Assembly (NCBI RefSeq): GCF_024168485.1
Contig: NZ_JALJVY010000007.1
Coordinates: 1 to 64,000, forward strand
Direction of reading: 5' to 3'
DNA from: Sphingobium sp. OAS761
GTDB taxonomy: Bacteria; Pseudomonadota; Alphaproteobacteria; Sphingomonadales; Sphingomonadaceae
Length of the DNA stretch: 64,000 nt
Shown here: piece after piece, positions 3,385-17,292 of the stretch
How the letters are laid out: every line of letters starts with the position of its first letter
How positions within the stretch are numbered: the stretch's first letter is position 1
Notes under the pieces: generated by a model
What the model saw: only the letters and a program-made list of their open reading frames with translations
Told to the model about the DNA's origin: nothing
Databases searched by the model: none
Program-made: the position numbers and the translations under genes

Positions 3385-3538
3385 CGATGCTGCATGATTG
3401 TGCCTGTGCTTGGGCGTGATGACAACCGGGTTGGGGGTTAACCCCCAACCCGGTTTGCCGACTGCTTTGGCCGCCATCTCGGCGGGGGTCATGTTGTCCA
3501 GGCCCGAGTAGGGCCGGTGAGAGTTGTAGTCGTGCTGC
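3385..3538 (-). pseudogene. IS3-family transposase remnant (C-terminal end)
   Basis: Read on the minus strand, this stretch encodes HDYNSHRPYSGLDNMTPAEM followed by AAKAVGKPGW, the DYN-HRP-S-L--LTPAE-A signature at the end of IS3-family integrase-type transposases. A TAG lies directly upstream of the fragment, so the catalytic core is gone and only about 50 codons remain. It contains the 32-base palindrome described separately. It lies between the NTF2-like gene and phnE, marking the accessory side of the phn locus. Boundaries are approximate. Confidence 0.6.
3424..3455. repeat. 32-base perfect palindrome
   Basis: The 16 bases aaccgggttgggggtt are immediately followed by their exact reverse complement, with no loop. 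It lies inside the IS3 transposase remnant and downstream of the NTF2-like gene. It could act as a cruciform or, less likely because there is no loop and no T-run, a terminator. Confidence 0.8.
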
Positions 3539-3565
3539 TATGAGCCAGAATGAACGGAAACCGCT

Positions 3566-4360
3566 CTAGCTGATCCCATTTCGTAGAAATGAGGAGCAGA
3601 TATCCAGAAAACTGCTGGTCAAAACGATGATGAGTAGGATGGCGGCGGATTGGGCGAAGTTGAAGGACTGTATCGATTCATGGAGCATGACACCGATTCC
3701 GCCTGCTCCCACCATCCCCACGACCATGGCAGACCGGACGTTCGATTCGAAGCGATAGATCGCAAACGATATCCACAGCGACAACACCTGCGGGATGATC
3801 GCGTAGCGAATTTCATCAATCTGCGCCGCGCCGGTGGCTCGGATGCCTTCCCTTGGCCTGGGGTCGATCGCCTCCACGGACTCGGCAAATAATTTAGCCA
3901 GCACGCCGGAGGTATGGACCCATAGCGCCAGCACCCCGGCAAAGGGGCCAAGGCCAACCGCGACGATGAACAGCATTGCAAAGACCATCTCGTTGATCGC
4001 CCGCAAAGTGTCCATCAGGCGCCGGACGGGCTGGACCACCCAGGCGGGAGCGACATTCTGTGCGGACAACAGGCCGAGCGGAATGGCCGCCAATATCGCC
4101 AGGAGAGTGCCCCACAAGGCGATCGAAAGCGTGATGTACATTTCATGGACATACTGCCGCCATTCGGAATAGTCGGGTGGAAAGAACCCGCGAGCGAATT
4201 CCCGCATGCCGTCCTGCCCCTGGAACAGGTCCATCGGCCGAATGTCCGCTCCTCGCCAGGTCGCGGCGAGAAGGGAAAGGATGATCAGCACGGGTAGAAG
4301 AGTGTAAAGGGAGTGGCGCCTATGGGCCAAAACTGCTTCAGAAGAACGGAGTTCGGACAT
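3566..4360 (-). CDS. phnE: phosphonate ABC transporter permease PhnE
   Basis: A 264-residue inner-membrane permease. A hydrophobic helix near residues 18-34 (TLLPVLIILSLLAA) is followed by a periplasmic segment and the permease core with helices around residues 78-98, 123-145 and 235-255. The EAA loop that contacts the ATPase is visible as EGIRATGAAQIDEIRYAIIP near residues 170-190. A segment GMVGAGGIGVML near the end is typical of PhnE. It is last in the phnC-phnD-phnE order, 12 bases after phnD. Only one permease gene is present, so the transporter is presumably a PhnE homodimer. Confidence 0.95.
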   Translation of the reverse strand: MSELRSSEAVLAHRRHSLYTLLPVLIILSLLAATWRGADIRPMDLFQGQDGMREFARGFFPPDYSEWRQYVHEMYITLSIALWGTLLAILAAIPLGLLSAQNVAPAWVVQPVRRLMDTLRAINEMVFAMLFIVAVGLGPFAGVLALWVHTSGVLAKLFAESVEAIDPRPREGIRATGAAQIDEIRYAIIPQVLSLWISFAIYRFESNVRSAMVVGMVGAGGIGVMLHESIQSFNFAQSAAILLIIVLTSSFLDICSSFLRNGIS

Positions 4361-4372
4361 GTTCTACTCTTC

Positions 4373-5230
4373 CTAGCGGCGCCCGGTGGACAGGTTTTTG
4401 ATGAAATCCAGGTCCCCGCTCGCTGGCTTCGTGAAGCCGGTTATCGTGACCAGCCCCGCCAGCACCTTCTTTTCATGGGGATCGGATTCGCCATAGCTGA
4501 GGAAAAAAGTGCGCAGCGAAGCCTTGGTAGCTTCCGGCAAATCCCGACGGTAAACCATCATGGCCGAGGGGATGAGGGGCGAGGTCCAGATCACCTTGAT
4601 CTTCCTGAACTGATCAGGATGGGAGGTGCGCAGGACGGACAGCATCTGGGTGCTGCTCGTCGCAACATCGACCTGGCGATTGACGACGGCCAGGATATTG
4701 GCTTGATGACCGGCGCTGACCAGCAGCTTGAACCGGCCCCTGTAATCCTGGCCCGGGCTCGAGAACAGATAATGGACCGGCGCCAGCGTGCCAGAAGTGG
4801 AATTGGCGTCACCGATGGCGAAAGTCAGATTGCGCGCCTGCCGCAGGACATCATCGGCCGAACGGAGCCTGTTGCCGGCTCGGGTGATGAGGACCGCATT
4901 GTAGCCCGCACGGCCATCCGCTTCGACTACTTTGGCGAAAACTTCGCCATCGGCGCGCTGGGTGGCTTCCAGCGCCGACATGCCGCCCAGAAACGCAACT
5001 TGCACCTTGTTGAAGCGCATGGCCTGCACGATGCCCGCGTAATTGGGCGCGTAAAAGGCATCGACCTTCAGCCCGGTCCGGCGGCGTAGGTCAGCAAAGA
5101 CCGGCTCCCATCTTTCCTTGAGGACGAGGGAGGAGTCCGTGGACATGATGCCGATATTGATCTGCTGCTGCGGCTCCGACGAGCAGCTTGCAAGGACTAG
5201 GCTTAGAATCAGGAGGATGGTCCGTTTCAC
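4373..5230 (-). CDS. phnD: phosphonate ABC transporter substrate-binding lipoprotein PhnD
   Basis: A 285-residue periplasmic binding protein. Residues 1-15 are a lipoprotein signal and the lipobox LASC gives Cys16 as the lipidated residue, so here PhnD is membrane-tethered, whereas E. coli PhnD is soluble. The body has family hallmarks: [30 protein letters not shown] and the [12 protein letters not shown] loop that holds the phosphonate group. It overlaps the end of phnC by 4 bases and is followed by phnE, so the three are translationally coupled. Preferred phosphonate unknown. Confidence 0.95.
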
Positions 5231-6006
5231 GCTGCGGCCTTCGCAACCGAAATGGCCCGCCCCTCGTAGAGCGCGGTCAGATCATCGTCTGAAAGGCCCG
5301 ACCCAGGACCGTCATAAACGATTCTGCCCTGACTGAGTGCGACGATTCGGGGGCAGAATTGCCGCGCCATGTCGATCTGGTGAAGCGACACCAGAACGGT
5401 CATATCATGAGCGGTGTTCAATTGGCGCATAAGTTCCAGCACCCGCACAGCCGACCTTGGGTCGAGCGATGCGATTGGCTCGTCCGCCAGCAGCAACCGC
5501 GCCTGCTGAACTAGCACGCGCGCGATCGCAGCGCGCTGCTGCTGCCCGCCGGACAGGTCATCGGCGCGCTGGGCCGCATGGGTCGCCATCCCCACCTCCG
5601 TCATCGCCGTCACGGCCAATGCCCGCTCGCGCTCCGGAAAGAGGCCGAGCAGTCGCCGCCACAAGGGCAATCTGGCAAGACAGCCCAGCAGGACATTGGT
5701 TTCCAGCGACAAACGACCGACCAGGTTGAACTGCTGGAACACAAAACCGACGTCTCGCCTTATGCTCCGCACGTTGCGGGCTATCCGGCCGTCGATTTGG
5801 ACCGATTGCCGATAAACCCGCACGTTGGATCCTGCGTCGCCGGTGACGAATCCCGCTATATGCCGCAGCAGCGTCGATTTGCCGCTGCCTGAGGCGCCGA
5901 TGATCGCAACCATTTCGCCGGGCGCGACCCGCAGATCGATTCCGTCCAGCAACTTACGGCCGCGGGCCACGGTTTTGTTCAGATTCTCAATATGTATCGC
6001 GTCCAT
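5227..6006 (-). CDS. phnC: phosphonate ABC transporter ATP-binding protein PhnC
   Basis: A 259-residue ABC ATPase: Walker [10 protein letters not shown] at residues 37-45, Q-loop in [15 protein letters not shown], signature [15 protein letters not shown], Walker [14 protein letters not shown] and the switch histidine in [12 protein letters not shown]. The Q-loop and the region after it are PhnC-like. The start at 6006 ([11 protein letters not shown]) is chosen because it gives the normal ABC N-terminus; the frame stays open to 6141, but that stretch carries the regulatory palindromes. It is first of phnCDE, reads away from the TonB receptor gene and shares its promoter region. Confidence 0.95.
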
Positions 6007-6080
6007 CACGAACTTGCCAATCGATGAAAAGGCGCGGGCAAAGAGGACTTGGCCCACATAGGAGACTCGTAGGCCCAAAT

Positions 6081-6099
6081 CGTGACACTTTGATGTCAT
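6081..6099 (-). promoter_or_regulatory. candidate PHO box upstream of phnC
   Basis: On the minus strand the sequence reads ATGACAT-CAAA-GTGTCAC, which resembles the PhoB-binding consensus CTGTCAT-N4-CTGTCAC (5 of 7 and 6 of 7 matches in the two half-sites with the right 4-base spacer). It lies about 75 bases before the phnC start, in the orientation expected for phosphate-starvation activation. Functional status is inference. Confidence 0.4.
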
Positions 6100-6101
6100 T
6101 G

Positions 6102-6117
6102 TATAGACGTCTGTATA
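6102..6117. promoter_or_regulatory. candidate PhnF operator 1 (phnC / TonB receptor)
   Basis: tatagacgtctgtata contains the perfect 8-base palindrome AGACGTCT in an AT-rich surround. Closely related sequences recur at 6141-6150 and upstream of phnG/phnF at 10767-10780, which is the pattern expected for a GntR/HutC-type repressor such as the PhnF encoded in this locus. It lies between phnC and the divergent TonB receptor gene. Confidence 0.6.
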
Positions 6118-6140
6118 ATAATATTCATAATGGATAAACA

Positions 6141-6150
6141 TCTAGACGTC
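6141..6150. promoter_or_regulatory. candidate PhnF operator 2 (phnC / TonB receptor)
   Basis: tctagacgtc repeats the TAGACGTC core of the site at 6102-6117, with its GACGTC core 39 bases further on. Two sites in the same divergent promoter suggest cooperative repression of both phnC and the TonB receptor gene. The second half of the palindrome is imperfect (followed by gtcac). Confidence 0.5.
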
Positions 6151-6235
6151 GTCACATCTGTGTAATGTTCCATCCTTAGAGGCGGGCACGGCGGGAGCCA
6201 CCGCCTCCACCAGACAGTCAAACGGGGCCTAGACA

Positions 6236-8623
6236 ATGCACAGACGGCACACGATCGCTTCCCGGCGATATCTGAGAGGTACAATCTTTTCCGGTTTCGC
6301 AGCGCTGGCTGTCGCGACCGCGCCGGCGTTGGCGGCCGAGTCGGCGCCCGCCCCTGCCAACAGGGACGGCGAGGCGCTGGGCGACATTATCGTTACCGGC
6401 GAGAAGCGACCGCAAAACCTTCAGGCCACGCCGACGGCGATTTCGGTCCTGTCGGGGGCGGACCTGGCCAGTCGCCATATCACTTCGCTCCAGGACCTGA
6501 CGGACGGCTCGGTCCCGTCGCTGCGGATCGCGCCTTTCTATTCACGAAGTTCGGCGCTGATCGTGAATATTCGCGGCGTGGGGGTGCTTTTCGACGTCAA
6601 CCAGCCTGCACGTGACCAAGGCGTGGGCATCTATGTCGATGGCGTCTACATGGGCCGCGCTCAGGGATTAGGCACTGCCCTGTTCGACATCGAGAATATC
6701 GAGGTGCTCAAGGGCCCGCAGGGCACACTGTTCGGACGCAACACCGAAGGCGGCGCGGTGAACATCACCACCAAGAAGCCTAGTGGCGAGTTCCACGTCA
6801 ACGGCACTGCCGGAATAGGCAATTACGGCAGTTACAAGACCGAAGCTCATATCGATCTGCCGGCGTTCCATAATATCAGCCTGAAGCTGGACGGTGTCAT
6901 CGCCCATCGCGACGCTGTGGTGAAGAATCCCCTGGACGGCGCTTATGGCTTCAACTTCTACGACAAGCGCGGCGTGCACGTCGAAGCGCTGTGGCGGGCG
7001 GCCCCTGGTCTCACTGTCGATGCCGCCTTCGATCATTCCTATGACGCATCTACCCCGCTGTACCAGCAATTGCTGGCTCCGGGATCGAACATCCAGGCAG
7101 CGCTGGGCACGGTCCAGCCAAGCCGCGCGGACACGGCCAACGTCGGCGTTCCCCAACAGCCGAGCATCGGCAAGACCAACGGCTATCGCCTGACCTTGGA
7201 ATGGCAGTTGGCGACCGTGCTGACCCTCAAGTCGATCAGCGCCTATCGCGACTTGCGCCAGAGCCAATATGACAATGGGTCAGCCGCGATCACGATGAGC
7301 AACAATGGCGGCAGGTTCAGCGACATGACATTCAGCCGCTACAGCCTCGCCCAGGTCCATCAGAAGCAGGCCAGCCAGGAAATCGACCTGATCGGCGAGA
7401 TTCCGGGGCTGAAATATGTCGCCGGGGCCATGTGGTATCGGGAAAAGGTGCAGGATAATGCGCAGACCCTGCCCACCAACAAATTTCTGGACGCAAGCGG
7501 CAGCAGCTACACGATCCTGCCCTACGATCTGGATGCACAGCCCCTCGACCGGGCGAGTCACGTTACCACCACCAGCATCGGCCTGTTCGGCCAGGCGACC
7601 TACACGCCGTCCATGCTGGACGAAAGGCTGCACCTGACAGGAGGGTTGCGCTGGACCCGGGATGAGAAGAAGGGCGAATTGTTCATCGTGAACGGCAAGA
7701 CGCCCACAGTGAACGGCGTTACCGCGCCGCGCGTTCTGGATGCGGCATGGTCGCGGGTCGATCCGATGGTCACCCTTGCCTATGATGCAACGGACGACGT
7801 GCATCTCTATGCGAAGTGGAGCACGGGCTATAAATCGGGCGGCGCCAATTCGCGGTCGCTGCCCTATCTCGCATTCGATCCGGAGTCGCTTTCAGTGTTC
7901 GAGATCGGCGCAAAGACCGAGTTCTGGGACCGGCGCGGCCGGTTGAACCTGGCGGCCTATGCCGGGGCCTACAAGGACATCCAGGTGGATTTCCAGGCCA
8001 ATTATGAGCAGATCATCAACGGCCAGCGGGTATATACGACGCGTACCACGATAGAGACGATCAACGCGCCGGGGACCGGCCGTGTACGGGGGGTGGAAGC
8101 GGACCTGACCCTGGCGCCGGTGAGGGGACTGACGCTTTCGGGCAGCTATGCCTATACCGACCCGCACATCCCGCCGACGGTGAACCCGTTTCCCCAAGGG
8201 TCGTCCGGCACGATTATTACCACGCCCGTACAGATCTATTCCGTCTATACGCCCAAACATGCCATCAGCGGGGCCGTGGACTATGAACATCGGTTGGGCG
8301 ACGCCACCACGCGCTTCCACATCGACGCCAATTACGACTCCGGCTTCTATGCCGCCTTCGTAAATCCACTATACTATGGCCCGGGCGATGCCCGCAACGT
8401 CATGCAACCCAAGGGCGAGAAATCCTTCATCGTCAATGCCCGGCTGGCCATCGCGGACATAGCGATGCGCGATTCCGGCGCGACGCTGACCGCTGCGCTG
8501 TGGGTGCGCAACCTCTTCAACGAGCAACATGCATTTTATCGCGCGCTCACAGTCTCGTCCGGCACCAGCGGCTTCTTCAACGATCCGCGCATGTTCGGCG
8601 GCGAGATCAACGTGAGGTTTTAG
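6236..8623 (+). CDS. TonB-dependent outer-membrane receptor of the phn locus
   Basis: A 795-residue receptor: signal peptide to about residue 33 (cleavage after APALA), TonB box-like DIIVTGEK at 50-56, plug domain with IYVDGVYMGRAQG and EVLKGPQGTLFGRNTEGGAV, then a 22-strand-type beta-barrel ending in the typical C-terminal aromatic, EINVRF. The plug motif places it among the IroN/FecA-like receptors common in sphingomonads. It is divergent from phnC, shares a promoter region carrying two putative PhnF sites, and is enclosed by phn genes on both sides. Import of phosphonates or phosphonate-containing ligands across the outer membrane is therefore a reasonable inference. It is not a standard component of described phn operons. 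Confidence 0.9.
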   Translation: MHRRHTIASRRYLRGTIFSGFAALAVATAPALAAESAPAPANRDGEALGDIIVTGEKRPQNLQATPTAISVLSGADLASRHITSLQDLTDGSVPSLRIAPFYSRSSALIVNIRGVGVLFDVNQPARDQGVGIYVDGVYMGRAQGLGTALFDIENIEVLKGPQGTLFGRNTEGGAVNITTKKPSGEFHVNGTAGIGNYGSYKTEAHIDLPAFHNISLKLDGVIAHRDAVVKNPLDGAYGFNFYDKRGVHVEALWRAAPGLTVDAAFDHSYDASTPLYQQLLAPGSNIQAALGTVQPSRADTANVGVPQQPSIGKTNGYRLTLEWQLATVLTLKSISAYRDLRQSQYDNGSAAITMSNNGGRFSDMTFSRYSLAQVHQKQASQEIDLIGEIPGLKYVAGAMWYREKVQDNAQTLPTNKFLDASGSSYTILPYDLDAQPLDRASHVTTTSIGLFGQATYTPSMLDERLHLTGGLRWTRDEKKGELFIVNGKTPTVNGVTAPRVLDAAWSRVDPMVTLAYDATDDVHLYAKWSTGYKSGGANSRSLPYLAFDPESLSVFEIGAKTEFWDRRGRLNLAAYAGAYKDIQVDFQANYEQIINGQRVYTTRTTIETINAPGTGRVRGVEADLTLAPVRGLTLSGSYAYTDPHIPPTVNPFPQGSSGTIITTPVQIYSVYTPKHAISGAVDYEHRLGDATTRFHIDANYDSGFYAAFVNPLYYGPGDARNVMQPKGEKSFIVNARLAIADIAMRDSGATLTAALWVRNLFNEQHAFYRALTVSSGTSGFFNDPRMFGGEINVRF

Positions 8624-8634
8624 GATGGCCTTGC

Positions 8635-8668
8635 CCCGGCATTGCGACCTCGGGGACGCAATGCCGGG
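8635..8668. terminator. bidirectional terminator between TonB receptor and phnN
   Basis: A perfect 12-bp stem (CCCGGCATTGCG with CGCAATGCCGGG) around a 10-base loop, located between two convergent genes that end 12 and 6 bases away. There is no strong T-run, but position and stem stability fit an intrinsic terminator serving both strands. Confidence 0.7.
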
Positions 8669-8673
8669 TGAGA

Positions 8674-9210
8674 TTATTGAAAAGCTCTCAAAATCCGCTC
8701 TCCGGCAGCGGGCAAATCGCCGGAATTGTCGATCGTGACGAGGTGGGCACCCGCGGGCGGACGCCATGAGCGATTGATTGTGATGCGCTTCTCGATCTCG
8801 GACGAGCCTTCACGGCCGCGCGCGGTCAGGCGAGCTTTCAGGATCGCGGGATCGGTGTCGATCACGATGATCCGCAGCTCCGGATATCGCTTCAATGCAG
8901 TCGCTAGGTAGCTGCGCGAACCGTTGACTACCACGGAACTGCCAGTGGCGAGCCATAAGTCTATTTCGACGCCGATGCCGTAATGGAGTGAATGGCTCGC
9001 CCATTCCAGCGCGAAGAAACCCAGCGCGGAACGTCGCGCAAATTCGGCATCGCTTAGCACCACATGGTTTTCATGGCCGCCGGTGGGGCGCGTGATATAT
9101 CGGTGGGCGAAAAGGATACGTCCGTCGATATTTTTCCGGCGAGCGTAATTGATCAGCGAATCCTTGCCTGATCCCGACGGCCCGATGACGTAGAAAAGCG
9201 TCCCGGCCAT
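8674..9210 (-). CDS. phnN: ribose 1,5-bisphosphate phosphokinase PhnN
   Basis: A 178-residue P-loop kinase of the PhnN type, which converts ribose 1,5-bisphosphate, the end product of the C-P lyase pathway, to PRPP. Walker A is GPSGSGKDS at residues 10-18, and FAHRYITRPTGGHENHVVLS is the guanylate-kinase-like substrate segment conserved in PhnN. The ATG at 9210 overlaps the DUF1045 stop (TGATG); a GTG 3 bases earlier is an alternative. The gene is last of phnF-DUF1045-phnN, reading away from phnG. Together with the plus-strand operon it completes conversion of phosphonates to PRPP. Confidence 0.95.
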   Translation of the reverse strand: MAGTLFYVIGPSGSGKDSLINYARRKNIDGRILFAHRYITRPTGGHENHVVLSDAEFARRSALGFFALEWASHSLHYGIGVEIDLWLATGSSVVVNGSRSYLATALKRYPELRIIVIDTDPAILKARLTARGREGSSEIEKRITINRSWRPPAGAHLVTIDNSGDLPAAGERILRAFQ

Positions 9211-9902
9211 CACGCACTCACGCCCGCGAGCAACGGAATACGAGTCCAGAGCATAAACGGCTCATCCGGCTCGCGTTCAACGAACAGCGCCAGATTGTCG
9301 AAAGGCACCGGTCCCAGGCGATCACATTGCTTCTGCCACCAGCCGATCAGCGCCCGCACCTCCTCGGGGTCGGCAACGGGGTCGGTCAATGTCATGTGGA
9401 ACAGAAACTCGTCCAGCACATAGGGGTAGCCCCAGCGTGTCAGCAATTCGCCTTGTCGTTTAGTCAGCTCCGGCGTCCGGCGGCGCTCCGTTTCTGACGG
9501 AGACAGCGGCCTGCGCAGCGGGAACAATCTCTGCAACGCCTGGGACGCGATGGTCCCCATCCAATCGTCGCCATCACCGAGAGCAGGGCGAAGGGCGATG
9601 AAGCCCCGGAACCAGGTCGGTGCAACTGCAAGATCGAAAGGCGCGATGCTGTTCGCAAGCAGCTGCACGGTTGTCAGCAGGTGCGCGGGCGTCAACCCTT
9701 CCCCCAGCTGGAATGGCGGACAGATCGTGCCGTGCCACCCGTAACGGGCCGCCATGCCCGTGATCCGGGCAACCTCGACTCCCTCCGGCGGGGAAACGGG
9801 CTCACCCGTTTCAGGATCACGCCCCAGCCAGGAGCAGCCGGCCGCCCACCATGCGGATGTACTAGGCGGCGCATAATATAGAGCAAAGCGCGCGCGGCTC
9901 AC
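9210..9902 (-). CDS. DUF1045 phosphonate-metabolism protein, 2H-phosphoesterase-like
   Basis: A 230-residue protein of the DUF1045/TIGR03223 family found in phn clusters. Two H-x-T motifs, HGT at residues 57-59 and HMT at 169-171, place it in the 2H phosphoesterase superfamily, whose members act on cyclic phosphodiester bonds. The GTG at 9902 (MSRARFALYYAPP) is chosen: it lies 16 bases after the phnF stop, follows a purine-rich GAGCGGGA and gives the family length; an upstream ATG at 9947 would overlap phnF. phnP, whose product opens phosphoribosyl cyclic phosphate, is not present, so this protein may supply a comparable activity. That role is inference; the family lacks an established reaction. 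Confidence 0.85.
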   Translation of the reverse strand: MSRARFALYYAPPSTSAWWAAGCSWLGRDPETGEPVSPPEGVEVARITGMAARYGWHGTICPPFQLGEGLTPAHLLTTVQLLANSIAPFDLAVAPTWFRGFIALRPALGDGDDWMGTIASQALQRLFPLRRPLSPSETERRRTPELTKRQGELLTRWGYPYVLDEFLFHMTLTDPVADPEEVRALIGWWQKQCDRLGPVPFDNLALFVEREPDEPFMLWTRIPLLAGVSA

Positions 9903-9918
9903 ATCCCGCTCGCCACAG

Positions 9919-10695
9919 TCAGCCGGACTTGGTGGGCGCATCGTCATTTTCGACCAGAAGCTGAACGCGATCGGCGGCGAAATAGGTGGTGCCATATTTG
10001 ATCGGCACCCCTTCAAAATCGACGTCGAGATTCTCGACGCGCAATATGGCCTGCTGTTTATTCATCGAAAGATGCCGCACCGCCACGGAATCGGCAAGTT
10101 CGCCGCCGATCCGGCTCCATTTGCGATAATAATCCTCCACCCCGTAGTTTTTCATAGCCGCGGTGAAGCCGCCCGCACGCTCGATCATCACCGGCAGGTC
10201 GGGGAAGCGGGCGGCGGGATAGTAGTTGACGGCATAGGCAAGGGCCACATCATCGACCTTGTTCAGCACTTCCATCTGATAGACCAAAGCGCCGCGGGGC
10301 AATTCAAGATGGGCAGCGATGTCCGGTTCTGCCTTGAGGCTATGTGCCCGCAAGGTAATGCCAACTGCAGTCTGATCTTGTTGGTTCAGATTCTCGGTAA
10401 AGCGAGTCCGCTTGCCGATAGCATAATCAATAACGCCCGATTGCACGAAAGTGCCGCGTCCCTGCTCCACCCTGACCAGCCCGGTGGCGGCCAGGCCAAG
10501 CATGGCGCGGCGGACCGTGTGGCGATTGACGTCGAACCGCTCCGCCAACTCCGTCTCGCTGGGCAACCGTTCACCGCCCGCAAAACGCTTGTCCTTTATA
10601 TCCTTTGCCAGCGCCTCTTCGATCTGCCGCCATACGGCGATCCCACCGCCGCGTTCCAGCAGTTCCTGCCTTTCGTTCTGATCCCCGATCGCCAT
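9919..10695 (-). CDS. phnF: GntR-family phosphonate operon regulator PhnF
   Basis: A 258-residue HutC-type GntR regulator. The N-terminal winged helix is clear (LPSETELAERFDVNRHTVRR, then GLVRVEQGRGTFV), followed by the UbiC-like ligand-binding domain (LVYQMEVLNKVDDVALAYAV and VENLDVDFEGVPIKYG). The start at 10695 (MAIGDQNERQ) has AGGTG 8-9 bases upstream; in-frame starts at 10722 and 10752 exist but are less well placed. It is divergent from phnG with a palindromic operator candidate between them, so it is probably autoregulated and represses the C-P lyase operon. Confidence 0.9.
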   Translation of the reverse strand: MAIGDQNERQELLERGGGIAVWRQIEEALAKDIKDKRFAGGERLPSETELAERFDVNRHTVRRAMLGLAATGLVRVEQGRGTFVQSGVIDYAIGKRTRFTENLNQQDQTAVGITLRAHSLKAEPDIAAHLELPRGALVYQMEVLNKVDDVALAYAVNYYPAARFPDLPVMIERAGGFTAAMKNYGVEDYYRKWSRIGGELADSVAVRHLSMNKQQAILRVENLDVDFEGVPIKYGTTYFAADRVQLLVENDDAPTKSG

Positions 10696-10766
10696 CAATA
10701 CGCACCTGTTTTTCGTTTGCATCCTGATGAAGTGAATTTTCCCTCTAGTCAATCATCATCTACTCG

Positions 10767-10780
10767 TATAGATGTCTATC
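10767..10780. promoter_or_regulatory. candidate PhnF operator 3 (phnF / phnG)
   Basis: tatagatgtctatc contains the inverted repeat TAGA-TG-TCTA and matches the TATAGACGTCT sites upstream of phnC. It lies 44 bases before phnG and about 70 bases before phnF, in the AT-rich divergent promoter region, where repressor binding would affect both genes. Confidence 0.6.
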
Positions 10781-10823: not shown

Positions 10824-11300
10824 ATGCAATTTTGTGCCGAAAGAGCGGCCGACCGGCGAGGCACATGTCTCTCGGTGCTTGCGCGAGCTTCGCAGGACGA
10901 AATGGAGGTCGTCCTGCGGGATGAGATGATAAGCCGGCTCGCCTATTCCTATGAATTTCTCCGCACGCCGGAAACCGGGCTGGTGACGGTGCGCGGACGC
11001 ATCGGCTCCACCGGGCGCGCTTTCAACCTTGGTGATGTGACCGTGAGCCGCGCTACCCTGCGGCTGGAATGCGGCGGCGGCCCCATCATCGGCATAGCGC
11101 GCATCCTAGGGCGCGACCGGGACCGGGCGGAGATCGTTGCCCTGCTGGATGCGCTGCTGCAACTGCCAACGCTACATGAGCGCCTCTACGAAGAGCATAT
11201 TGCTCCGCTCCAGCGGGCACAGGCGGCACGCCGCGCCGAAGCTGCGGCGGATACAGCGGCAACGCGGGTCGAATTTTCCGTCATGACGCGAGGCGAATAA
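10824..11300 (+). CDS. phnG: C-P lyase core subunit PhnG
   Basis: A 158-residue protein beginning with the conserved R-G---VLARA segment (TCLSVLARASQDEMEVVLRD) and a family-typical middle (RTPETGLVTVRGRIGSTGRA, then FNLGDVTVSRATLRL). PhnG is a structural subunit of the PhnGHIJ complex that first couples the phosphonate to ATP in place of adenine. GGAG five bases before the ATG at 10824 supports the start. First gene of phnGHIJKLM; its stop directly abuts the ATG of phnH. Confidence 0.95.
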   Translation: MQFCAERAADRRGTCLSVLARASQDEMEVVLRDEMISRLAYSYEFLRTPETGLVTVRGRIGSTGRAFNLGDVTVSRATLRLECGGGPIIGIARILGRDRDRAEIVALLDALLQLPTLHERLYEEHIAPLQRAQAARRAEAAADTAATRVEFSVMTRGE

Positions 11301-11906
11301 ATGCACTCCACGATCGACATGGCCGCCGTGATGCCGGGGTTCGCCAATCCCGTGCTGGATGCGCAGCGAGTTTCCCGCTGCCTGCTCTTCGCCTTGGCGC
11401 GGCCCGGCCTGGTTCAGGACCTGCCGGAAATGGGCCTATGCGTCCCGCCCGCGACCGACCTTGCGGCCTATGCCGCATTCCTCGCTCTGGCCGACCATGG
11501 GACTCCGATTTTCCTGCCCGCGGCGAACGAAGCGCTGGCTTCATCGCTTCGTTTCCATACCGGTTCGCCGATACTCGACCATCCCGACCATGCGGCATTC
11601 GCCTATATCGGCGATTGGCGGGATGCGCCGGGCCTCACGGACTGTCCACTCGGCAGCGTCCACTCGCCCGAGCAGGCGGTGACGCTCTTCCTTTCGGTTT
11701 CCGCCTTTTCGGATGGCGCGGAATATCGGCTCAGCGGCCCCGGCATCGACAACAGCATTTTGATCGCGCCTTCCGGCCTGCCCGATGATTTCTGGACGCA
11801 GCGCGCGGCTATCGCATCGCTCTTTCCTCGCGGCGTCGATTGTTACCTCACCTGCGGTTCGCAGCTCATGGGGCTGCCACGCACTACCGTCGCGGAGAAG
11901 ATCTGA
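11301..11906 (+). CDS. phnH: C-P lyase core subunit PhnH
   Basis: A 201-residue PhnH with the hallmark opening PGFANPVLDAQRVSRCLLFA and later GPGIDNSILIAPSGLPDDFW. PhnH is a homodimeric component of the C-P lyase core complex related in fold to PLP transferases, without known catalysis of its own. Its ATG follows the phnG stop with no gap, and its own TGA overlaps the phnI start by one base (TGATG), so expression is tightly coupled. Confidence 0.95.
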   Translation: MHSTIDMAAVMPGFANPVLDAQRVSRCLLFALARPGLVQDLPEMGLCVPPATDLAAYAAFLALADHGTPIFLPAANEALASSLRFHTGSPILDHPDHAAFAYIGDWRDAPGLTDCPLGSVHSPEQAVTLFLSVSAFSDGAEYRLSGPGIDNSILIAPSGLPDDFWTQRAAIASLFPRGVDCYLTCGSQLMGLPRTTVAEKI

Positions 11907-13063
11907 TGTATGTTGCGGTAAAAGGCGGCGAAAAAGCCATCGAGGCGTCCCGGCGTCTGCTTGAGAAGCAACGGCGCGGCGACAGCCGGCTCGCCGAACT
12001 GTCCGTCTCCCAGATTCGCGAGCAATTGCGTCTGGCGGTGGCGCGAGTGATGACCGAAGGATCGCTCTATGACGAGGAACTGGCAGCGCTGGCGATCAAG
12101 CAGGCCGCGGGCGATCTGGTCGAGGCGATCTTCCTGCTGCGCGCCTATCGCACAACGTTGCCGCGCTTCGGCTATTCCGCACCGTTGGATGTCGGCGCGA
12201 TGGCGGTCCAACGGCGGATATCCGCGATCTTCAAGGACGTTCCGGGCGGCCAGTTTCTGGGGGCGACTCATGATTTCACGCAAAGGCTGCTGGATTTCTC
12301 CCTGCTGGCCGATGGTGGCGATACGGTGCTACCGGCGATAGCCGGGGGTGATGATGATGCCATCTCGCTGTCCCCGGCCCGACTGGCCCGCGTGTACGAC
12401 CTGCTGGAGCAACGCGGCCTGATCGCGCAGGAGGAGGCACCGGCCGACGCGCCCGATCCGGTCGACCTCGCGCTCGAGCCCTTACATCTGCCTGCCGAAC
12501 GCCCCACGCGCCTGCAGAACCTCGCCCGTGGGGATGAAGGCTTTCTGCTCGCGATGGCCTATGCCACCCAGCGCGGCTATGGCGGCAACCACCCCTTCAC
12601 CGGCGAACTGCGCTTCGGCACGGTGAGCGTGGAGGTTAGCGTCGACGAACTGGACGGCGCTGTCATCGATATCGGAGACCTCGCTGTCACCGAATGCCAG
12701 ACCATCAACCAGTTTCACAGCAGCCCCGATCATCCACTGGCCTTCACGCAGGGCTATGGCCTTGCCTTCGGCCATTCGGAACGCAAGGCGATCGCTATGG
12801 CGCTGGTCGACCGGGCGCTGTGTTCGGAGGAGCTGGGCGAGACGATCACATCGCCTGCGCAGGATCCCGAATTCATGCTGCTGCATAGTGACAATGTCGA
12901 AGCGTCCGGTTTCGTTCAGCACCTCAAACTGCCCCACTATGTCGATTTCCAGGTGGAGGTCGAATTGCTGCGACGCTTTCAAGCAAACGCTCATCGCGCC
13001 GACGCGACCGATGAAATCCCCTTGCCAGTGGAACGAGACCGTGACCTTGCCATCCAAGAATGA
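11906..13063 (+). CDS. phnI: C-P lyase core subunit PhnI
   Basis: A 385-residue PhnI starting MYVAVKGGEKAIEASRRLLE, the invariant N-terminus of the family. The subunit is implicated, with PhnG and PhnH, in the transfer reaction that releases adenine from ATP and attaches the phosphonate to ribose triphosphate. Conserved blocks such as EGSLYDEELAALAIKQAAGD and VTECQTINQFHSSPDHPLAF are all present and length is normal (E. coli 354). Starts inside the phnH stop and overlaps the phnJ start by 23 bases. Confidence 0.95.
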   Translation: MYVAVKGGEKAIEASRRLLEKQRRGDSRLAELSVSQIREQLRLAVARVMTEGSLYDEELAALAIKQAAGDLVEAIFLLRAYRTTLPRFGYSAPLDVGAMAVQRRISAIFKDVPGGQFLGATHDFTQRLLDFSLLADGGDTVLPAIAGGDDDAISLSPARLARVYDLLEQRGLIAQEEAPADAPDPVDLALEPLHLPAERPTRLQNLARGDEGFLLAMAYATQRGYGGNHPFTGELRFGTVSVEVSVDELDGAVIDIGDLAVTECQTINQFHSSPDHPLAFTQGYGLAFGHSERKAIAMALVDRALCSEELGETITSPAQDPEFMLLHSDNVEASGFVQHLKLPHYVDFQVEVELLRRFQANAHRADATDEIPLPVERDRDLAIQE

Positions 13064-13940
13064 CGCCGTCTTCCGCAATGGCGACTATAATTTCGCCTAT
13101 CTGGATGAACAGACCAAGCGGATGATCCGCCGCGCCCTACTGAAGGCGGTGGCGATACCCGGCTATCAGGTGCCGTTCGCGGCGCGGGAGATGCCGCTTC
13201 CCTACGGCTGGGGCACCGGGGGCATTCAGCTGACCGCCGCCCTAATCGGACCGCGGGATGTCCTGAAGGTGATCGATCAGGGGGCCGACGACACGACGAA
13301 TGCGGTCAACATCCGCAGCTTCTTCGAAAGAATGACCGATGTGGCCACGACCACTTTGGTTCAGGAGGCGACGCTGATCCAGACGCGCCATCGTATCCCC
13401 GAAACGCCGCTTCGCGCGGACCAGATCCTGATCTATCAGGTGCCGCTGCCCGATCCGGTCTCCCGGCTGGAGCCGCGCGGAACCGAGCGCGCCAATATGC
13501 ATGCCTTCGGCGACTATGGGCTTATCAACGTCAAGCTGTACGAAGACATCGCCCAGCATGGCAGCGTGGCGATGGCGTTCGACTATCCGGTGATCGTGAA
13601 CGGTCGTTATCTGGCGTCGCCTTCCCCCATCCCCAAGTTCGACAATCCGAAACTCCATATGAATCCAGCCTTGCAATTGTTCGGCGCCGGGCGGGAGCGG
13701 CGCATCTACGCCATTCCGCCCTTCACTTCCGTTCGCAGCCTGGATTTCGACGATCATCCGTTCACGATTCAGCCGTGGGACGAATCCTGCGCGCTGTGCG
13801 GCGCGCCGGACAGCTTCCTGGAGGAGATGACCGTTGATGACCGTGGCAACCGGCAACATATCTGCTCTGACAGCGACTATTGCGCGCAGCGGCGGGCGAC
13901 CCAGCCCGCTCACGTCCGGCATCAGGAGGCCATGCCATGA
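13041..13940 (+). CDS. phnJ: alpha-D-ribose 1-methylphosphonate 5-phosphate C-P lyase PhnJ
   Basis: The radical-SAM catalytic subunit that breaks the carbon-phosphorus bond. The four cysteines occur as C250, C253, C275 and C281 (CALC, then CSDSDYC), with spacing C-x2-C-x21-C-x5-C identical to E. coli PhnJ. The radical glycine is G41 in the sequence AIPGYQVPF, equivalent to Gly32 there. The GTG at 13041, inside the end of phnI and preceded by GGAACGAG, is chosen; the family's YNFAYLDEQTKRMIRRA follows after 16 residues. TTG at 13047 is an alternative. All known catalytic residues are intact. Confidence 0.95.
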   Translation: MTLPSKNDAVFRNGDYNFAYLDEQTKRMIRRALLKAVAIPGYQVPFAAREMPLPYGWGTGGIQLTAALIGPRDVLKVIDQGADDTTNAVNIRSFFERMTDVATTTLVQEATLIQTRHRIPETPLRADQILIYQVPLPDPVSRLEPRGTERANMHAFGDYGLINVKLYEDIAQHGSVAMAFDYPVIVNGRYLASPSPIPKFDNPKLHMNPALQLFGAGRERRIYAIPPFTSVRSLDFDDHPFTIQPWDESCALCGAPDSFLEEMTVDDRGNRQHICSDSDYCAQRRATQPAHVRHQEAMP

Positions 13941-14707
13941 CCGCCCTTCTCAGCGGTCGCGGGTTGACCAGAATGTTCGACGGCAAGAATGGTTGCGCTC
14001 AGATCGACATCGATCTCCATCCCGGCGAAGTGACTTGCATCGTGGGGGAATCGGGCTCGGGGAAGACCACCCTGCTCAACCTGCTATCTCTGCAATTGCG
14101 GCCGGATGCAGGGAGTTTGTACTATCGGACGGACGACGGCGCGCGGATCGACCTGGGACTTGCCTCCGAAATTGATCGCCGCCGTCTGATGCGGACGGAA
14201 TGGGGGTTCGTGCGACAGAATCCCCGCGACGGCCTGCTCCGCGATGTGTCGGCGGGCGCGAACATCAGTGAACGGTTGATGGCGAACGGCGCGCGTCATT
14301 ATGGAGCATTGCGCGATACGGCCATCGACTGGATGCGAAAGGTTGAACTCGACCATGGCCGTGTAGACGATCTGCCGCGCGATTTTTCCGGCGGTATGCA
14401 GCAGCGCCTTCAGATCGCGCGTAATCTGGTGACGGGTCCCCGGCTGCTGTTCATGGACGAGCCGACGGCGGGTCTGGACGTGTCGGTCCAGGCGAGGCTG
14501 CTCGATCTCCTGCGGACGCTGACGTCTCAATTGGGCATCGCCATCCTGATCGTCACGCACGACATCGGCGTGGCGAGGCTGCTGGCCCATCGCCTTCTCG
14601 TCATGCGTCGGGGGCGCATCATTGAAACTGGCCTGACCGACCAGGTGCTGGACGATCCCCAGCAGCCCTATACGCAGATGCTTGTTTCCTCCGTCCTTCC
14701 CGTGTGA
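13937..14707 (+). CDS. phnK: C-P lyase ABC-type subunit PhnK
   Basis: A 256-residue ABC ATPase-like protein: Walker A GESGSGKTT at residues 37-45, signature FSGGMQQRLQIARNL, Walker B LLFMDEPTAGLDVS and the switch histidine in LIVTHDIGVARL. PhnK binds the PhnGHIJ core through PhnJ and is thought to drive turnover of the complex rather than transport. The ATG at 13937 overlaps the phnJ stop by 4 bases (ATGA). The insertion WGFVRQNPRDGLLRDVSAGA is a recognised PhnK feature that separates it from transporter ATPases. Confidence 0.95.
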   Translation: MTALLSGRGLTRMFDGKNGCAQIDIDLHPGEVTCIVGESGSGKTTLLNLLSLQLRPDAGSLYYRTDDGARIDLGLASEIDRRRLMRTEWGFVRQNPRDGLLRDVSAGANISERLMANGARHYGALRDTAIDWMRKVELDHGRVDDLPRDFSGGMQQRLQIARNLVTGPRLLFMDEPTAGLDVSVQARLLDLLRTLTSQLGIAILIVTHDIGVARLLAHRLLVMRRGRIIETGLTDQVLDDPQQPYTQMLVSSVLPV

Positions 14708-14715
14708 GGAATCCT

Positions 14716-15456
14716 ATGTTGACCATGCAATTCGATGTCGCGGAGACGGCCGGAAACAGATTGGCTCCGGACGTCATGATAGACGTTTCCGGCCTGTCCA
14801 AGAGTTTCACCATCCATGCCCAATCCGCGACGCGGATCACGGCACTGCGCGCGGTGTCGTTTCAACTGCGCGCCGGCGAGTGCGTCGCGCTGACCGGCCC
14901 GTCCGGGGCAGGCAAGAGCACATTGCTACGCTGCATCTACGGCAATTATCTGGCCACCTGCGGCACTGTCTCAATCCGCGACCAGAAACGAGGCACCGTG
15001 ACCGTCACGGGAGCCGACCCGCGCGAAATCATCGCCCTGCGAAAAGACACGATCGGCTACGTCAGCCAATTCCTGCGGGCGATCCCGCGCGTGGGGGCGC
15101 AAGCATTGGTCGCGAGCCCGCTTGTCGAGCTGGGGGTGAAAGAAGCGGTGGCCCTGCGCCGCGCCGCCGAATTGCTGGAGCGCCTCGCCATCCCGCAAAA
15201 ACTCTGGGCTCTACCTCCCGCTACCTTTTCCGGCGGCGAGCAGCAGCGAATCAATATCGCCCGCGGCCTGATCGCCGATCACCCCATCCTCCTACTCGAT
15301 GAGCCCACAGCTTCGCTGGACGCCGCTAACAGCGCGATCGTCAGCGAGTTGATCCTGGAGCGGCGGAACAAGGGGACCGCGATCATGGGCATTTTCCACG
15401 ACGAGGAAACGCGGGATCGCGTCGCCACCCGGCTGTTCCCACTGCAAGCGGCCTGA
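14716..15456 (+). CDS. phnL: C-P lyase ABC-type subunit PhnL
   Basis: A 246-residue ABC ATPase: Walker A GPSGAGKST at residues 61-69, signature FSGGEQQRINIARGL, Walker B ILLLDEPTASLD. The VSQFLRAIPRVGA segment after the Q-loop is diagnostic of PhnL. In the C-P lyase assembly PhnK and PhnL bind together on the core. The ATG at 14716 is chosen for the GAGGA five bases upstream; a GTG at 14704 overlapping the phnK stop is possible but less likely. Followed after 43 bases by phnM. Confidence 0.95.
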   Translation: MLTMQFDVAETAGNRLAPDVMIDVSGLSKSFTIHAQSATRITALRAVSFQLRAGECVALTGPSGAGKSTLLRCIYGNYLATCGTVSIRDQKRGTVTVTGADPREIIALRKDTIGYVSQFLRAIPRVGAQALVASPLVELGVKEAVALRRAAELLERLAIPQKLWALPPATFSGGEQQRINIARGLIADHPILLLDEPTASLDAANSAIVSELILERRNKGTAIMGIFHDEETRDRVATRLFPLQAA

Positions 15457-15499: not shown

Positions 15500-16624
15500 A
15501 TGTTGATCACCAATGCTAAAATTGTCACACCTGACGAGGTCTTCATTGGAACACTACAATGTGATGGCGGCCGGATTTCAGATATTTCGACCGGCTCCAG
15601 CACGGCTCCGGATGCGATGGACTGGGGCGGCGACTATCTGCTGCCGGGCTTTGTCGAACTGCACACCGACAACCTCGAAAAGCACCTGATGCCGCGTCCG
15701 GGCGTCCTCTGGAACGCCCAGGCAGCCCTCGTAATGCATGACGTCGATGTCGCCGCCGCCGGTATTACAACGGTGTTCGACGCGCTCGCCGTCGGCAGCC
15801 GCGACCAGGGCGTGCGCGGCCGGGAGGTGCAAGGGGCCTGCGCGAAAGTGCTGGAGCAACTGGCCGGGCATTTGCGGGCCGACCACTATCTTCACCTGAG
15901 ATGCGAGGTGGCCGCGGCCGATGTGGTCGATGCTTTCGACGCCCTAGCGAGCCACCCCCGATTACAGTTGGCCTCGGTCATGGATCATACGCCCGGGCAA
16001 CGGCAATGGCGCAATCATGCGCAATGGCGGCGCTATCATGAACGGCACGGGAAGATCGCCGATGCTCAGATCGAGACCGTGCTGGTGGAAATGCGCGAGG
16101 AGCAAGAGAGATTTTCTACCCCTCATAGGCAGGCGATCGTGGAGCGTTGCGCTACGCTGGGGATTGCGGTCGCCAGCCATGATGACACGGATATCGATCA
16201 TGTCGAGCAGGCCGTGATCGAAGGCATCGCCCTTTCGGAATTTCCAACGACGCTCGCTGCCGCTCGCGCCGCGCATGAGCGTGGGATCTCGACCATCATG
16301 GGCGGCCCCAATGTCGTCCGGGGCGGATCACATTCCGGCAATGTATCGGCGCTCGAACTGGCAGAGGCCGGCTGCCTCGACATCCTTTCGTCGGACTATG
16401 TGCCGGCCAGCCTGCTCCTCGGGGCTTTCACTCTGGCCGGAATCGAGGGGTGGGATCTGCCCCGTGCGGTACGGACCATCTCCCTTTCACCCGCACAGAG
16501 GGTCGGCCTGACGGATCGCGGCGCCGTCGCTCCGGGCCTACGGGCGGATTTCGTGCGGGTGACGATGATCAACGGACAGCCGGTCCCGGTGGAAACCCAT
16601 GTCTGTGGGCGCCGCGTCGCATGA
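15500..16624 (+). CDS. phnM: alpha-D-ribose 1-methylphosphonate 5-triphosphate diphosphatase PhnM
   Basis: A 374-residue amidohydrolase-superfamily enzyme that removes pyrophosphate from the ribose triphosphate adduct to give the PhnJ substrate. Metal-binding signatures are intact: ELHTDNLEKH with His55 and Asp57, the later ASHDDTDIDH, and LSSDYVPASLLLGA near the end. The ATG at 15500 has GACGAGG about seven bases upstream; longer frames from 15464 lack an SD. Its TGA overlaps the start of the PNPOx-like gene by 4 bases. Confidence 0.95.
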   Translation: MLITNAKIVTPDEVFIGTLQCDGGRISDISTGSSTAPDAMDWGGDYLLPGFVELHTDNLEKHLMPRPGVLWNAQAALVMHDVDVAAAGITTVFDALAVGSRDQGVRGREVQGACAKVLEQLAGHLRADHYLHLRCEVAAADVVDAFDALASHPRLQLASVMDHTPGQRQWRNHAQWRRYHERHGKIADAQIETVLVEMREEQERFSTPHRQAIVERCATLGIAVASHDDTDIDHVEQAVIEGIALSEFPTTLAAARAAHERGISTIMGGPNVVRGGSHSGNVSALELAEAGCLDILSSDYVPASLLLGAFTLAGIEGWDLPRAVRTISLSPAQRVGLTDRGAVAPGLRADFVRVTMINGQPVPVETHVCGRRVA

Positions 16625-17292
16625 CGCCGGACGCAAATGGTCACGTGCGGGACATGCTTCGCAGCCTCCCGAGCCTGAAGGGTCCCTTTCCGCCGGTCGA
16701 TTTCAGCACCTTCCCGGATACGCCGCAGCAGGCGTTTCTGGATTGGCTGGGGGACGCGATTGCCGGCGGGATCAAGGAACCCCATGCGATGACGCTTTCA
16801 ACCGTTGACGCGGACGGTCGGGCGGACGCTCGAATGCTCATCCTCAAGAATGTCGACGAACGCGGCTGGCATTTCGCAACGCATATCGACAGCCCGAAAG
16901 GCCGGCAGCTTCTTGCCAATCCGGAGAGCGCCCTCACTTTCTACTGGGCGCAACTGGGCAGGCAGGTGCGCATCCGGGGGCGTGCCGTTCCGCTGCCCGA
17001 CCGGGAGTGCGCCGCGGACTTCCTGGAACGCCCGATGAGTGCAAGGGTCATCGCGATGGCCTCCATGCAAAGCCAGCCCCTCCATCCGGCCGAATTGGCG
17101 GATCGGCTTCATGATGCGCAGTCATTGTTTGACAAGAACCCCCACCATGTACTGAGCGCATGGAAAGTCATGGCGGTGGCTCCGCGGTCGGCAGAATTCT
17201 GGCAGGGCGCATCGGATCGGAATCATAAGAGGCTATGCTATTCCGCATCGGATGACGGCGCCGGATGGGTTAAGGCAGTTCTATGTGCCTAA
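16621..17292 (+). CDS. PNPOx-like FMN-binding protein at the end of the phn operon
   Basis: A 223-residue protein of the pyridoxamine 5'-phosphate oxidase family. FMN-binding segments ARMLILKNVDERGWHFAT and ALTFYWAQLGRQVRIRGRAV match PdxH, as does the C-terminal AEFWQGASDRNHKRLCY, where an R-x-H-x-R-type motif (RNHKR) corresponds to the PLP-contacting RLHDR of E. coli PdxH. Its ATG overlaps the phnM stop (ATGA), so it is co-translated with the C-P lyase genes. It may be a genuine PNP oxidase or a flavoprotein with a new substrate linked to phosphonates, since PLP-dependent and pyridoxal-like phosphate chemistry is not otherwise part of the pathway. No phnO or phnP is seen downstream. Confidence 0.85.
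   Translation: MTPDANGHVRDMLRSLPSLKGPFPPVDFSTFPDTPQQAFLDWLGDAIAGGIKEPHAMTLSTVDADGRADARMLILKNVDERGWHFATHIDSPKGRQLLANPESALTFYWAQLGRQVRIRGRAVPLPDRECAADFLERPMSARVIAMASMQSQPLHPAELADRLHDAQSLFDKNPHHVLSAWKVMAVAPRSAEFWQGASDRNHKRLCYSASDDGAGWVKAVLCA

What the first reader, a model, noticed from the sequence alone, without database searches (positions are those of the whole stretch)
6102..10780. phn regulon appears to include a TonB-dependent receptor
A complete TonB receptor gene lies between phnC and phnN, divergent from phnC, and the promoter region between it and phnC carries two palindromes like the one between phnF and phnG. This suggests that outer-membrane uptake of a phosphonate or phosphonate-bearing ligand is co-regulated with the C-P lyase. 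TonB transport is not part of classic phn operons.
Basis: partly seen in the sequence, partly recalled or inferred. Interest (0 to 1): 0.7.

Follow-up and report, generated by a model that had tools for sequence, protein, structure and literature searches.

The report
Phosphorus-starvation outer-membrane receptor inside phosphonate cluster
A bacterium of the sphingomonad family carries, inside its gene cluster for breaking down phosphonates, an outer-membrane uptake receptor whose relatives often sit beside secreted phosphatases and phosphate-starvation switches, which suggests that it imports organic phosphorus, possibly phosphonates.

Summary
A complete TonB-dependent receptor (TBDT, 6236-8623) lies between phnC and phnN and shares a 229-nt divergent region with phnC. 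A PhnF motif learned from 59 phnF/phnG gaps of other genomes finds one strong and one weak site there, and one between phnF and phnG. A Pho-box-like motif learned from promoters of the receptor's relatives, which also hits upstream of a PstS-type gene of this genome, finds two sites there, one facing each gene.

C-P lyase is rare in this family (4 of 397 genomes, own included). Instead the subfamily goes with phosphorus scavenging: a Y_phosphatase3 gene follows in 24 of 47 relatives, in 0 of 45 distant TBDTs.

Best reading: a Pho-controlled organophosphorus receptor recruited into a horizontally acquired C-P lyase cluster, probably also under PhnF. The ligand is unproven. Pho-regulated TBDTs are known elsewhere; this phn-embedded, doubly controlled version is a new variant.

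The parts
6236..8623 (+). TonB-dependent receptor (795 aa), divergent from phnC
   Evidence: Plug 3.7e-16 and barrel 3e-31; no NCBIfam model above its cut-off; TBDT-like model, pTM 0.80
6149..6166 (+). Pho-box-like site facing the receptor
   Evidence: 16.7 bits with the motif learned from relatives' promoters, window left out; 0.002 expected in 229 nt
6082..6099 (-). Pho-box-like site facing phnC
   Evidence: 14.8 bits with the same motif; about 0.006 expected in 229 nt
6097..6112 (-). PhnF operator A (part of the palindrome around 6108/6109)
   Evidence: 14.6 bits with the PhnF motif from 59 phnF/phnG gaps of other genomes; holds GTATAGAC, which fits the HutC consensus GTMTAKAC (PMC4494728, passages)
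6136..6151 (-).
   Evidence: 8.3 bits; 2-mismatch hit at 6134-6147
10762..10777 (-). PhnF operator between phnF and phnG
   Evidence: 18.4 bits
5227..6006 (-). phnC, phosphonate ABC transporter ATPase (searched as 5227-6141)
   Evidence: TIGR02315 above cut-off
4373..5230 (-). phnD, phosphonate-binding protein
   Evidence: PF12974; TIGR01098 above cut-off, TIGR03431 just below its own
3566..4360 (-). phnE, phosphonate permease
   Evidence: TIGR01097 above cut-off
8674..9213 (-). phnN
   Evidence: TIGR02322 above cut-off
9210..9902 (-). DUF1045 phosphonate-operon protein (searched as 9210-9944)
   Evidence: PF06299 above cut-off; TIGR03223 221.4 bits, below its cut-off of 248.95
9919..10695 (-). 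phnF, GntR/HutC-type regulator (searched as 9919-10752)
   Evidence: TIGR02325 above cut-off
10824..11300 (+). phnG
   Evidence: TIGR03293 above cut-off
11301..11906 (+). phnH
   Evidence: TIGR03292 above cut-off
11906..13063 (+). phnI, the only PhnI found in the genome
   Evidence: PF05861 1.3e-150; the NCBIfam scan of this frame gave no family
13041..13940 (+). phnJ
   Evidence: similar to annotated phnJ genes; gene order
13937..14707 (+). phnK
   Evidence: similar to annotated phnK genes; gene order
14716..15456 (+). phnL
   Evidence: inferred from gene order; relatives in other phn loci
15500..16624 (+). phnM
   Evidence: inferred from gene order; relatives in other phn loci

Best explanation
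The gene encodes an outer-membrane TonB-dependent receptor of a Sphingomonadaceae subfamily that is switched on by phosphate starvation and serves organic-phosphorus uptake. In about half of its relatives (11 of the 17 others in its well-supported tree set) a Y_phosphatase3-type phosphatase, secreted to judge by its signal-like start, is encoded next to it. In this species the receptor has become part of a horizontally acquired C-P lyase cluster. It shares a divergent control region with phnCDE in which each side has a Pho-box-like site and an adjoining PhnF operator. Proposed working: phosphate scarcity activates both sides through PhoB; PhnF represses both until its inducer appears; the receptor brings the organophosphorus ligand across the outer membrane with TonB energy; PhnD with PhnC and PhnE moves the phosphonate inward, and C-P lyase releases the phosphate. 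Shown by computation: gene order, motifs, subfamily linkage. Inferred: horizontal origin, binding by PhoB and PhnF, co-regulation, and the ligand.
For: Gene order and domains. PhnF motif learned without the window (exact GTMTAKAC in 35 of 59 gaps against 18 of 1180 random stretches of the same loci) finds sites of 14.6 and 8.3 bits in this region and 18.4 bits at phnF/phnG. Pho-box-like sites: 10 or more of 14 consensus letters in 25 of 46 relatives' promoters against 5 of 41 distant TBDTs, Fisher p 3e-5; de novo motif tGTCAca...c.GacAt. Trained on the 16 promoters of a branch without the phosphatase, a motif separates 30 held-out relatives from 41 control TBDTs (p 3e-7), and the window (13.8) exceeds all 41 controls. 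The full motif scores 17.6 about 200 nt upstream of the genome's only PBP_like_2 match, taken to be pstS. PF13350 phosphatase downstream on the same strand in 24 of 47 relatives, in 0 of 45 distant TBDTs. In the tree the window receptor lies in an 18-row set, support 100/100, with 11 phosphatase-linked rows. It keeps 36 of 37 family-specific conserved polar residues, among them R80, R104, R126, R368, R439 (the script's numbers are one higher). [quoted passage not shown] starvation-induced PusCD and TBDT loci of Flavobacterium co-localise with phosphatases, and PusCD also with phosphonate-degrading enzymes (PMC8115612, passages); double HutC-type sites occur in divergent regions (PMC4494728, passages); Sphingobium uses a TBDT for a lignin-derived aromatic (PMC6874591, abstract and outline). 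Caution: some rows are near copies (L098/L099, L083/L084, L047/L114, L002/L003), so the p values are too small.
Against: None of the 47 relatives' loci shows a phn cluster in the stretch read. 1 of 66 other phn loci has a TBDT nearby, of another subfamily and without a convincing PhnF site (best 0.9 bits). The receptor is thus not needed for phn function in general. A PhnF site also lies between phnC and phnN of L211 (19.9 bits), so those here may serve phnCDE alone. The two nearest relatives by BLAST score (L083, L084) have no Y_phosphatase3 hit beside them. The motif learned from the 23 phosphatase-linked promoters alone was not a clear Pho box. The distant TBDTs gave a different motif of higher likelihood (193.8 against 170.9), so the method finds motifs in any such set; what counts is which one. 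The family-specific set holds ten acidic as well as fourteen basic residues, so it does not show an anion site. No Pho-box-like site lies between phnF and phnG (best 2.4 bits). The PhnF motif is not perfectly specific: 3 of 7 strand-hits of 8 bits or more in the window lie outside the phn region. The genome's only Y_phosphatase3 match lies on another contig, best Pho-type score nearby 7.5 bits.
Confidence: 0.6

Rival explanations
1. Neighbour only: a Pho-controlled receptor for phosphate esters happened to be at the place where the phn cluster arrived or was rearranged. It keeps its own Pho-controlled promoter, and the PhnF operators regulate phnCDE alone.
For: None of 47 relatives' loci shows a phn cluster in the stretch read, and 24 of 47 have a Y_phosphatase3 gene. 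The receptor keeps 36 of 37 family-specific polar residues, so no sign of a changed ligand site. A PhnF site near phnC occurs without a TBDT beside it (L211). A transposase remnant beside phnE (IS3-type by eye) speaks for rearrangement.
Against: A second, weaker operator adjoins the receptor-facing Pho box (6136-6151 and 6149-6166), the mirror of the phnC side; double sites in HutC-type divergons are reported to serve both operons or one each (PMC4494728, passages). The gene lies within the cluster, not at its edge.
Confidence: 0.3
2. Ordinary iron or siderophore receptor, or one for another substrate, placed here by chance in a TBDT-rich genome.
For: Best curated-model hit is the siderophore subfamily, far below its cut-off (103 against 223.5 bits); the best structural matches are mostly siderophore receptors at about 17% identity; 60 first-look TBDT candidates in 4.25 Mb.
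Against: Pho-box-like sites and phosphatase linkage across the subfamily, which the distant TBDTs lack or show less.
Confidence: 0.07

Closest known systems
TBDTs of the PhoB regulon of Caulobacter crescentus (PMC11208175, passages seen)
   Same: Alphaproteobacterial TBDTs under phosphate-starvation control, thought to import alternative phosphate donors
   Different: No phn cluster or PhnF operator in the passages seen; sequence kinship not tested here
PusCD and low-phosphate TBDTs of Flavobacterium (PMC8115612, passages seen)
   Same: Starvation-induced TBDTs beside phosphatases and phosphodiesterases; PusCD clusters also hold phosphonate-degrading enzymes
   Different: PusCD is a SusC/SusD-type pair in Bacteroidetes; here a single TBDT in a sphingomonad, with a PhnF-type repressor
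Comamonadaceae phn clusters (Acidovorax sp. T1 L120, Variovorax L121)
   Same: Same core: phnN, DUF1045, phnF divergent from phnG to phnM; PhnI 65-67% identical
   Different: phnCDE follow phnM and no TBDT is found in the stretch
Receptor plus Y_phosphatase3 pair of Sphingomonas plasmids (L042, L043)
   Same: Receptor about 62% identical
   Different: Followed by a phosphatase gene; no phn hits in the stretch
DdvT of Sphingobium SYK-6 (PMC6874591, abstract and outline seen)
   Same: Sphingomonad TBDT serving a catabolic pathway rather than iron uptake
   Different: Imports a lignin-derived biphenyl compound

Membership tests
TonB-dependent transporter | Plug and beta-barrel domains | tested here: met
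   PF07715 and PF00593 above cut-off; model matches solved TBDTs
TonB-dependent transporter | TonB box and energy-dependent uptake | not testable with these tools
   A TonB-box-like DIIVTGE is read by eye; uptake needs an experiment
PhnF regulon | PhnF-type operator in the promoter region | tested here: met
   Motif from other genomes scores 14.6 and 8.3 bits between phnC and the receptor
PhnF regulon | PhnF controls the receptor itself and not only phnCDE | not testable with these tools
   Shared divergent region; needs a phnF mutant or footprint
Pho regulon | Pho box upstream | tested here: met
   16.7 bits facing the receptor; the motif, Pho-box-like by a recalled consensus, also scores 17.6 upstream of the PstS-type gene
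Pho regulon | PhoB-dependent induction on phosphate starvation | not testable with these tools
   needs expression data
Conserved component of phn clusters | Recurs beside phn genes in other genomes | tested here: not met
   TBDT in 1 of 66 other phn loci, a different subfamily
Receptor plus Y_phosphatase3 pair | Phosphatase gene directly downstream | tested here: not met
   Downstream neighbour is convergent phnN; the only Y_phosphatase3 match in the genome is on contig C25
PusCD system | SusC-type receptor with a SusD lipoprotein | tested here: not met
   Neighbouring genes are phnC and phnN; SusC/RagA model 38.2 bits against a cut-off of 368.25
Siderophore receptor TIGR01783 | Score above the curated cut-off | tested here: not met
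   103 against 223.5 bits

The most novel reading that the evidence does not exclude
This is a TonB-dependent importer dedicated to phosphonates (free, metal-bound, or on larger molecules), recruited from a phosphate-ester receptor subfamily into a C-P lyase cluster and placed under both PhoB and PhnF, giving the phn pathway an active outer-membrane step.
Probability: 0.33. Interest if true: 0.7.

Novelty: new variant of a known kind. Interest (0 to 1): 0.5.

Why it matters
How phosphonates cross the outer membrane is, to my knowledge (recalled), usually left to passive pores. A receptor inside a C-P lyase cluster with PhnF-type and Pho-type sites makes an active outer-membrane step directly testable in a TBDT-rich bacterium. 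The wider result, a sphingomonad TBDT subfamily linked to phosphatases and Pho-box-like promoters, offers a ligand class for several dozen receptors. In nine literature searches of the held library I saw no report of a TBDT within a C-P lyase cluster under PhnF-type operators; I saw the listings, passages of eight papers and the abstract and outline of one. The nearest is the co-localisation of PusCD with phosphonate-degrading enzymes (PMC8115612, passages).

Tried and rejected
Nodularia as prior art: methylphosphonate raised two TBDT genes in N. spumigena, which the authors ascribe to iron starvation (PMC5955973, passages); in strain CCY9414 the listed TBDT genes have numbers far from the phn cluster (PMC3610870, passages). 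So not the same thing, though the induction is worth remembering. A Caulobacter TBDT beside a phosphate-starvation lipoprotein gene (Cc0171) was reported as constitutive by RT-PCR (PMC2996285, passages), and a rhizosphere proteome paper named no TBDT for phosphonates in the passages seen (PMC9426549). L211 as a second case: its TBDT lies just downstream of phnM, but it is a distant subfamily (63.8 bits), the genome has 46 first-look TBDT candidates, and no PhnF site above 0.9 bits lies upstream. G198 carries phn genes and two relatives of the receptor on one contig, about 35 kb apart. Base composition of the cluster is not distinctive. The window receptor departs from near-invariant positions 10 times, within the range of 16 near relatives (0 to 23). 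The structure search gave only general TBDT similarity. Megablast of the cluster found no plasmid record covering 80% of it; the best covers 7%.

Rows left out of counts: of 49 relatives beyond the window's own, 38 were fetched and 11 not; plasmid hits H1-H8 of 569 records and L002 and L003 of 37 loci were taken as relatives, the rest of the 37 serving as distant TBDTs where they aligned; L087 was dropped as a copy of L003; short copies L050-L079 and L001 were not counted. L103 (receptor with an internal TAG) counts as phosphatase-linked (24 of 47) but not (23 of 47), and was left out of the tree and promoter sets. L044 is cut by the record end, so its downstream neighbour is unseen. L094's second receptor has a Y_phosphatase3 hit upstream and divergent, and L021, a distant TBDT locus, has one over 5 kb away; neither is counted. 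Distant-TBDT promoters: 41 of 45 had a full 300 nt. and one search left out rows with stops or of 650 aa or less. Of 65 PhnI places outside the window, 60 were fetched (not G565, G753, G735, G638 and the second G500 place), plus three family loci and three plasmid loci chosen from 215 records, 66 in all; several stretches are cut by contig ends, one to 3.2 kb.
Full report
What is there. The window lies on contig C7 of a 4.25 Mb genome. Its family is taken to be Sphingomonadaceae: the genome G421, listed as same family, has a contig of 582,786 bases (L087), the same length as that of Sphingomonas sp. NFR15 (L003) with the matching receptor. A C-P lyase cluster runs from phnE (3566) to phnM (16624). 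One arm reads leftward: phnF, DUF1045, phnN, then, beyond the receptor, phnC, phnD, phnE. The other reads rightward: phnG to phnM. The receptor, 6236-8623, is divergent from phnC and convergent with phnN. It has both TBDT domains; no NCBIfam model reaches its cut-off.

PhnF-type sites. Between the likely phnC start (6006) and the receptor start (6236) are 229 nt. Site A is palindromic in 8 of 10 pairs. To avoid circularity I collected 59 divergent phnF/phnG gaps from 66 other phn loci. They hold GTMTAKAC, the HutC consensus given in PMC4494728 (passages), in 35 of 59, against 18 of 1180 random stretches of the same loci, and give the de novo motif AGATGTCTAGACAAAT. This motif scores 18.4 at phnF/phnG of the window, 14.6 at 6097-6112, 8.7 at the same palindrome on the other strand, and 8.3 at 6136-6151. 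A score of 8 or more is expected 0.003 times in 229 nt. In the whole window seven strand-hits reach 8: these four, a palindrome at 53266 on both strands (12.1 and 11.2) and 47995 (9.1).

Phosphate-starvation sites. Promoters of the receptor's relatives match the recalled Pho-box consensus in 10 or more of 14 letters in 25 of 46 cases, against 5 of 41 for distant TBDTs (Fisher p 3e-5). Motif discovery without a prior gave tGTCAca...c.GacAt, Pho-box-like; shuffled promoters gave far lower likelihoods (58 to 66 against 171). The distant TBDTs gave another motif, TAtTGCGAgTCAATcGCA, with a higher likelihood of 194; from memory it recalls an iron-regulator box of alphaproteobacteria, which I did not test. 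Trained on 16 promoters of a branch without the phosphatase, the motif separates 30 held-out relatives from 41 controls (p 3e-7); the window reaches 13.8, above all 41. Near copies among the rows make these p values too small. With the full motif, made without the window, two hits face outward: 6149-6166 toward the receptor (16.7) and 6082-6099 toward phnC (14.8). Three hits of 13 or more occur in 64 kb, two of them here; the third (30908) lies at the end of a moaA-like gene and may be chance. The motif also scores 17.6 about 200 nt upstream of the genome's only PBP_like_2 match, which I take to be pstS. Trained only on the 23 phosphatase-linked promoters the search returned a less clear motif.

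Layout. The region is nearly symmetric: Pho box facing phnC and operator A on one side, operator B and Pho box facing the receptor on the other; each operator overlaps its Pho box by three bases. PMC4494728 (passages) reports that double sites of this regulator class in divergent regions either act on both operons together or each on its own. That is why I think the receptor, and not phnC alone, answers to PhnF; it is an inference.

The receptor's kin. Relatives at E 1e-120 or better (40-64% identity) occur in 40 of 397 family genomes, own included (only the best two candidates per genome were scored); 2 of 385 class genomes, own included, have one at 1e-100 or better; others lie on plasmids. 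None of 47 loci examined, in stretches of about 16 to 32 kb with some cut shorter, shows hits to phnG to phnJ. In 24 of 47 a Y_phosphatase3 gene (PF13350 for the three tested) follows on the same strand within about 400 nt, overlapping the receptor's end in L042 and L043; for 45 distant TBDTs it is 0. The phosphatase of L042 begins with a signal-like sequence, read by eye. In the tree the window receptor sits in an 18-row set (100/100) with 11 phosphatase-linked members; its exact sister group is weakly supported (81/66). Neighbours of the others are mixed; some are other phosphorus enzymes (His_Phos_2 about 2.3 kb from the receptor in L047; a record-annotated phosphatidylinositol-specific phospholipase C about 8 kb away there; CysQ near that of L046), while L083 and L084, the nearest two, have no such link that I saw. 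Of 37 polar positions conserved in the subfamily and rare in other TBDTs the window keeps 36. Some of the arginines fall in plug loops or at strand ends of the model, but ten of the 37 are acidic, so this is suggestive only.

Is it a phn trait? No. PhnI occurs in 1 of 94 genomes of the genus (the own), in 4 of 397 of the family and in 65 of 385 of the class, own included. Of 66 other phn loci read in stretches of up to about 25 kb, one (L211) has a TBDT. The cluster's core resembles Comamonadaceae clusters in order and is 65-67% identical in PhnI, against 53-61% for the three family members. With the rarity in the genus and a transposase remnant beside phnE (IS3-type by eye), this points to horizontal acquisition and local rearrangement.

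Mechanism and rivals. Best reading: starvation activates, PhnF gates, the receptor imports an organophosphorus ligand, PhnCDE and C-P lyase use it. The ligand may be a phosphonate or a phosphate ester. The main rival is a neighbour without shared PhnF control; sequence cannot exclude it. An iron receptor by chance is unlikely given the Pho-type sites and the phosphatase linkage, though the genome is rich in TBDTs (60 first-look candidates), so location alone would prove little.

Relation to the literature. Starvation-controlled TBDTs are known in Caulobacter (PMC11208175, passages) and Flavobacterium, where PusCD clusters also hold phosphonate-degrading enzymes (PMC8115612, passages). A review of sphingomonad TBDTs mentions organophosphate insecticides but neither the word phosphonate nor phosphatase (PMC7142613, passages and counts). 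A TBDT in a C-P lyase cluster with PhnF-type operators was not seen in nine searches of the held library. Hence: a new variant of a known kind.

Noticed in passing
47 loci (L002, L003, L042-L049, L083-L119 without L087): A Sphingomonadaceae TBDT subfamily with Pho-box-like promoters and, in 24 of 47, a downstream Y_phosphatase3 gene; looks like an organic-phosphorus uptake pair.
   Followed up: partly
window 16621-17292: A pyridoxamine-phosphate-oxidase-like gene (PNPOx_N) overlaps the end of phnM (ATGA) and so seems to be in the phn operon; no BLAST relative at 1e-6 in 66 other phn loci.
   Followed up: partly
window about 3400-3540: What looks by eye like the truncated 3' end of an IS3-type transposase lies beside phnE, with a perfect 32-nt palindrome at 3424-3455; no family search named it.
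   Followed up: partly
window 53266: A palindrome scoring 12.1 and 11.2 with the PhnF motif lies between a biopterin-dependent hydroxylase gene and a GST-like gene; perhaps the operator of another regulator.
   Followed up: no
L211 2530-5052: In another alphaproteobacterium a different TBDT lies directly downstream of phnM; may be chance in a TBDT-rich genome.
   Followed up: partly
window 30908: Isolated Pho-box-like hit at the end of a moaA-like gene, before an NAD-kinase-like gene; probably chance.
   Followed up: no
promoters of 41 distant TBDTs (mostly L004-L038): They share a motif TAtTGCGAgTCAATcGCA in about 44%, which from memory resembles an iron-regulator box; a contrast to the Pho-type motif of the receptor's subfamily.
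   Followed up: no
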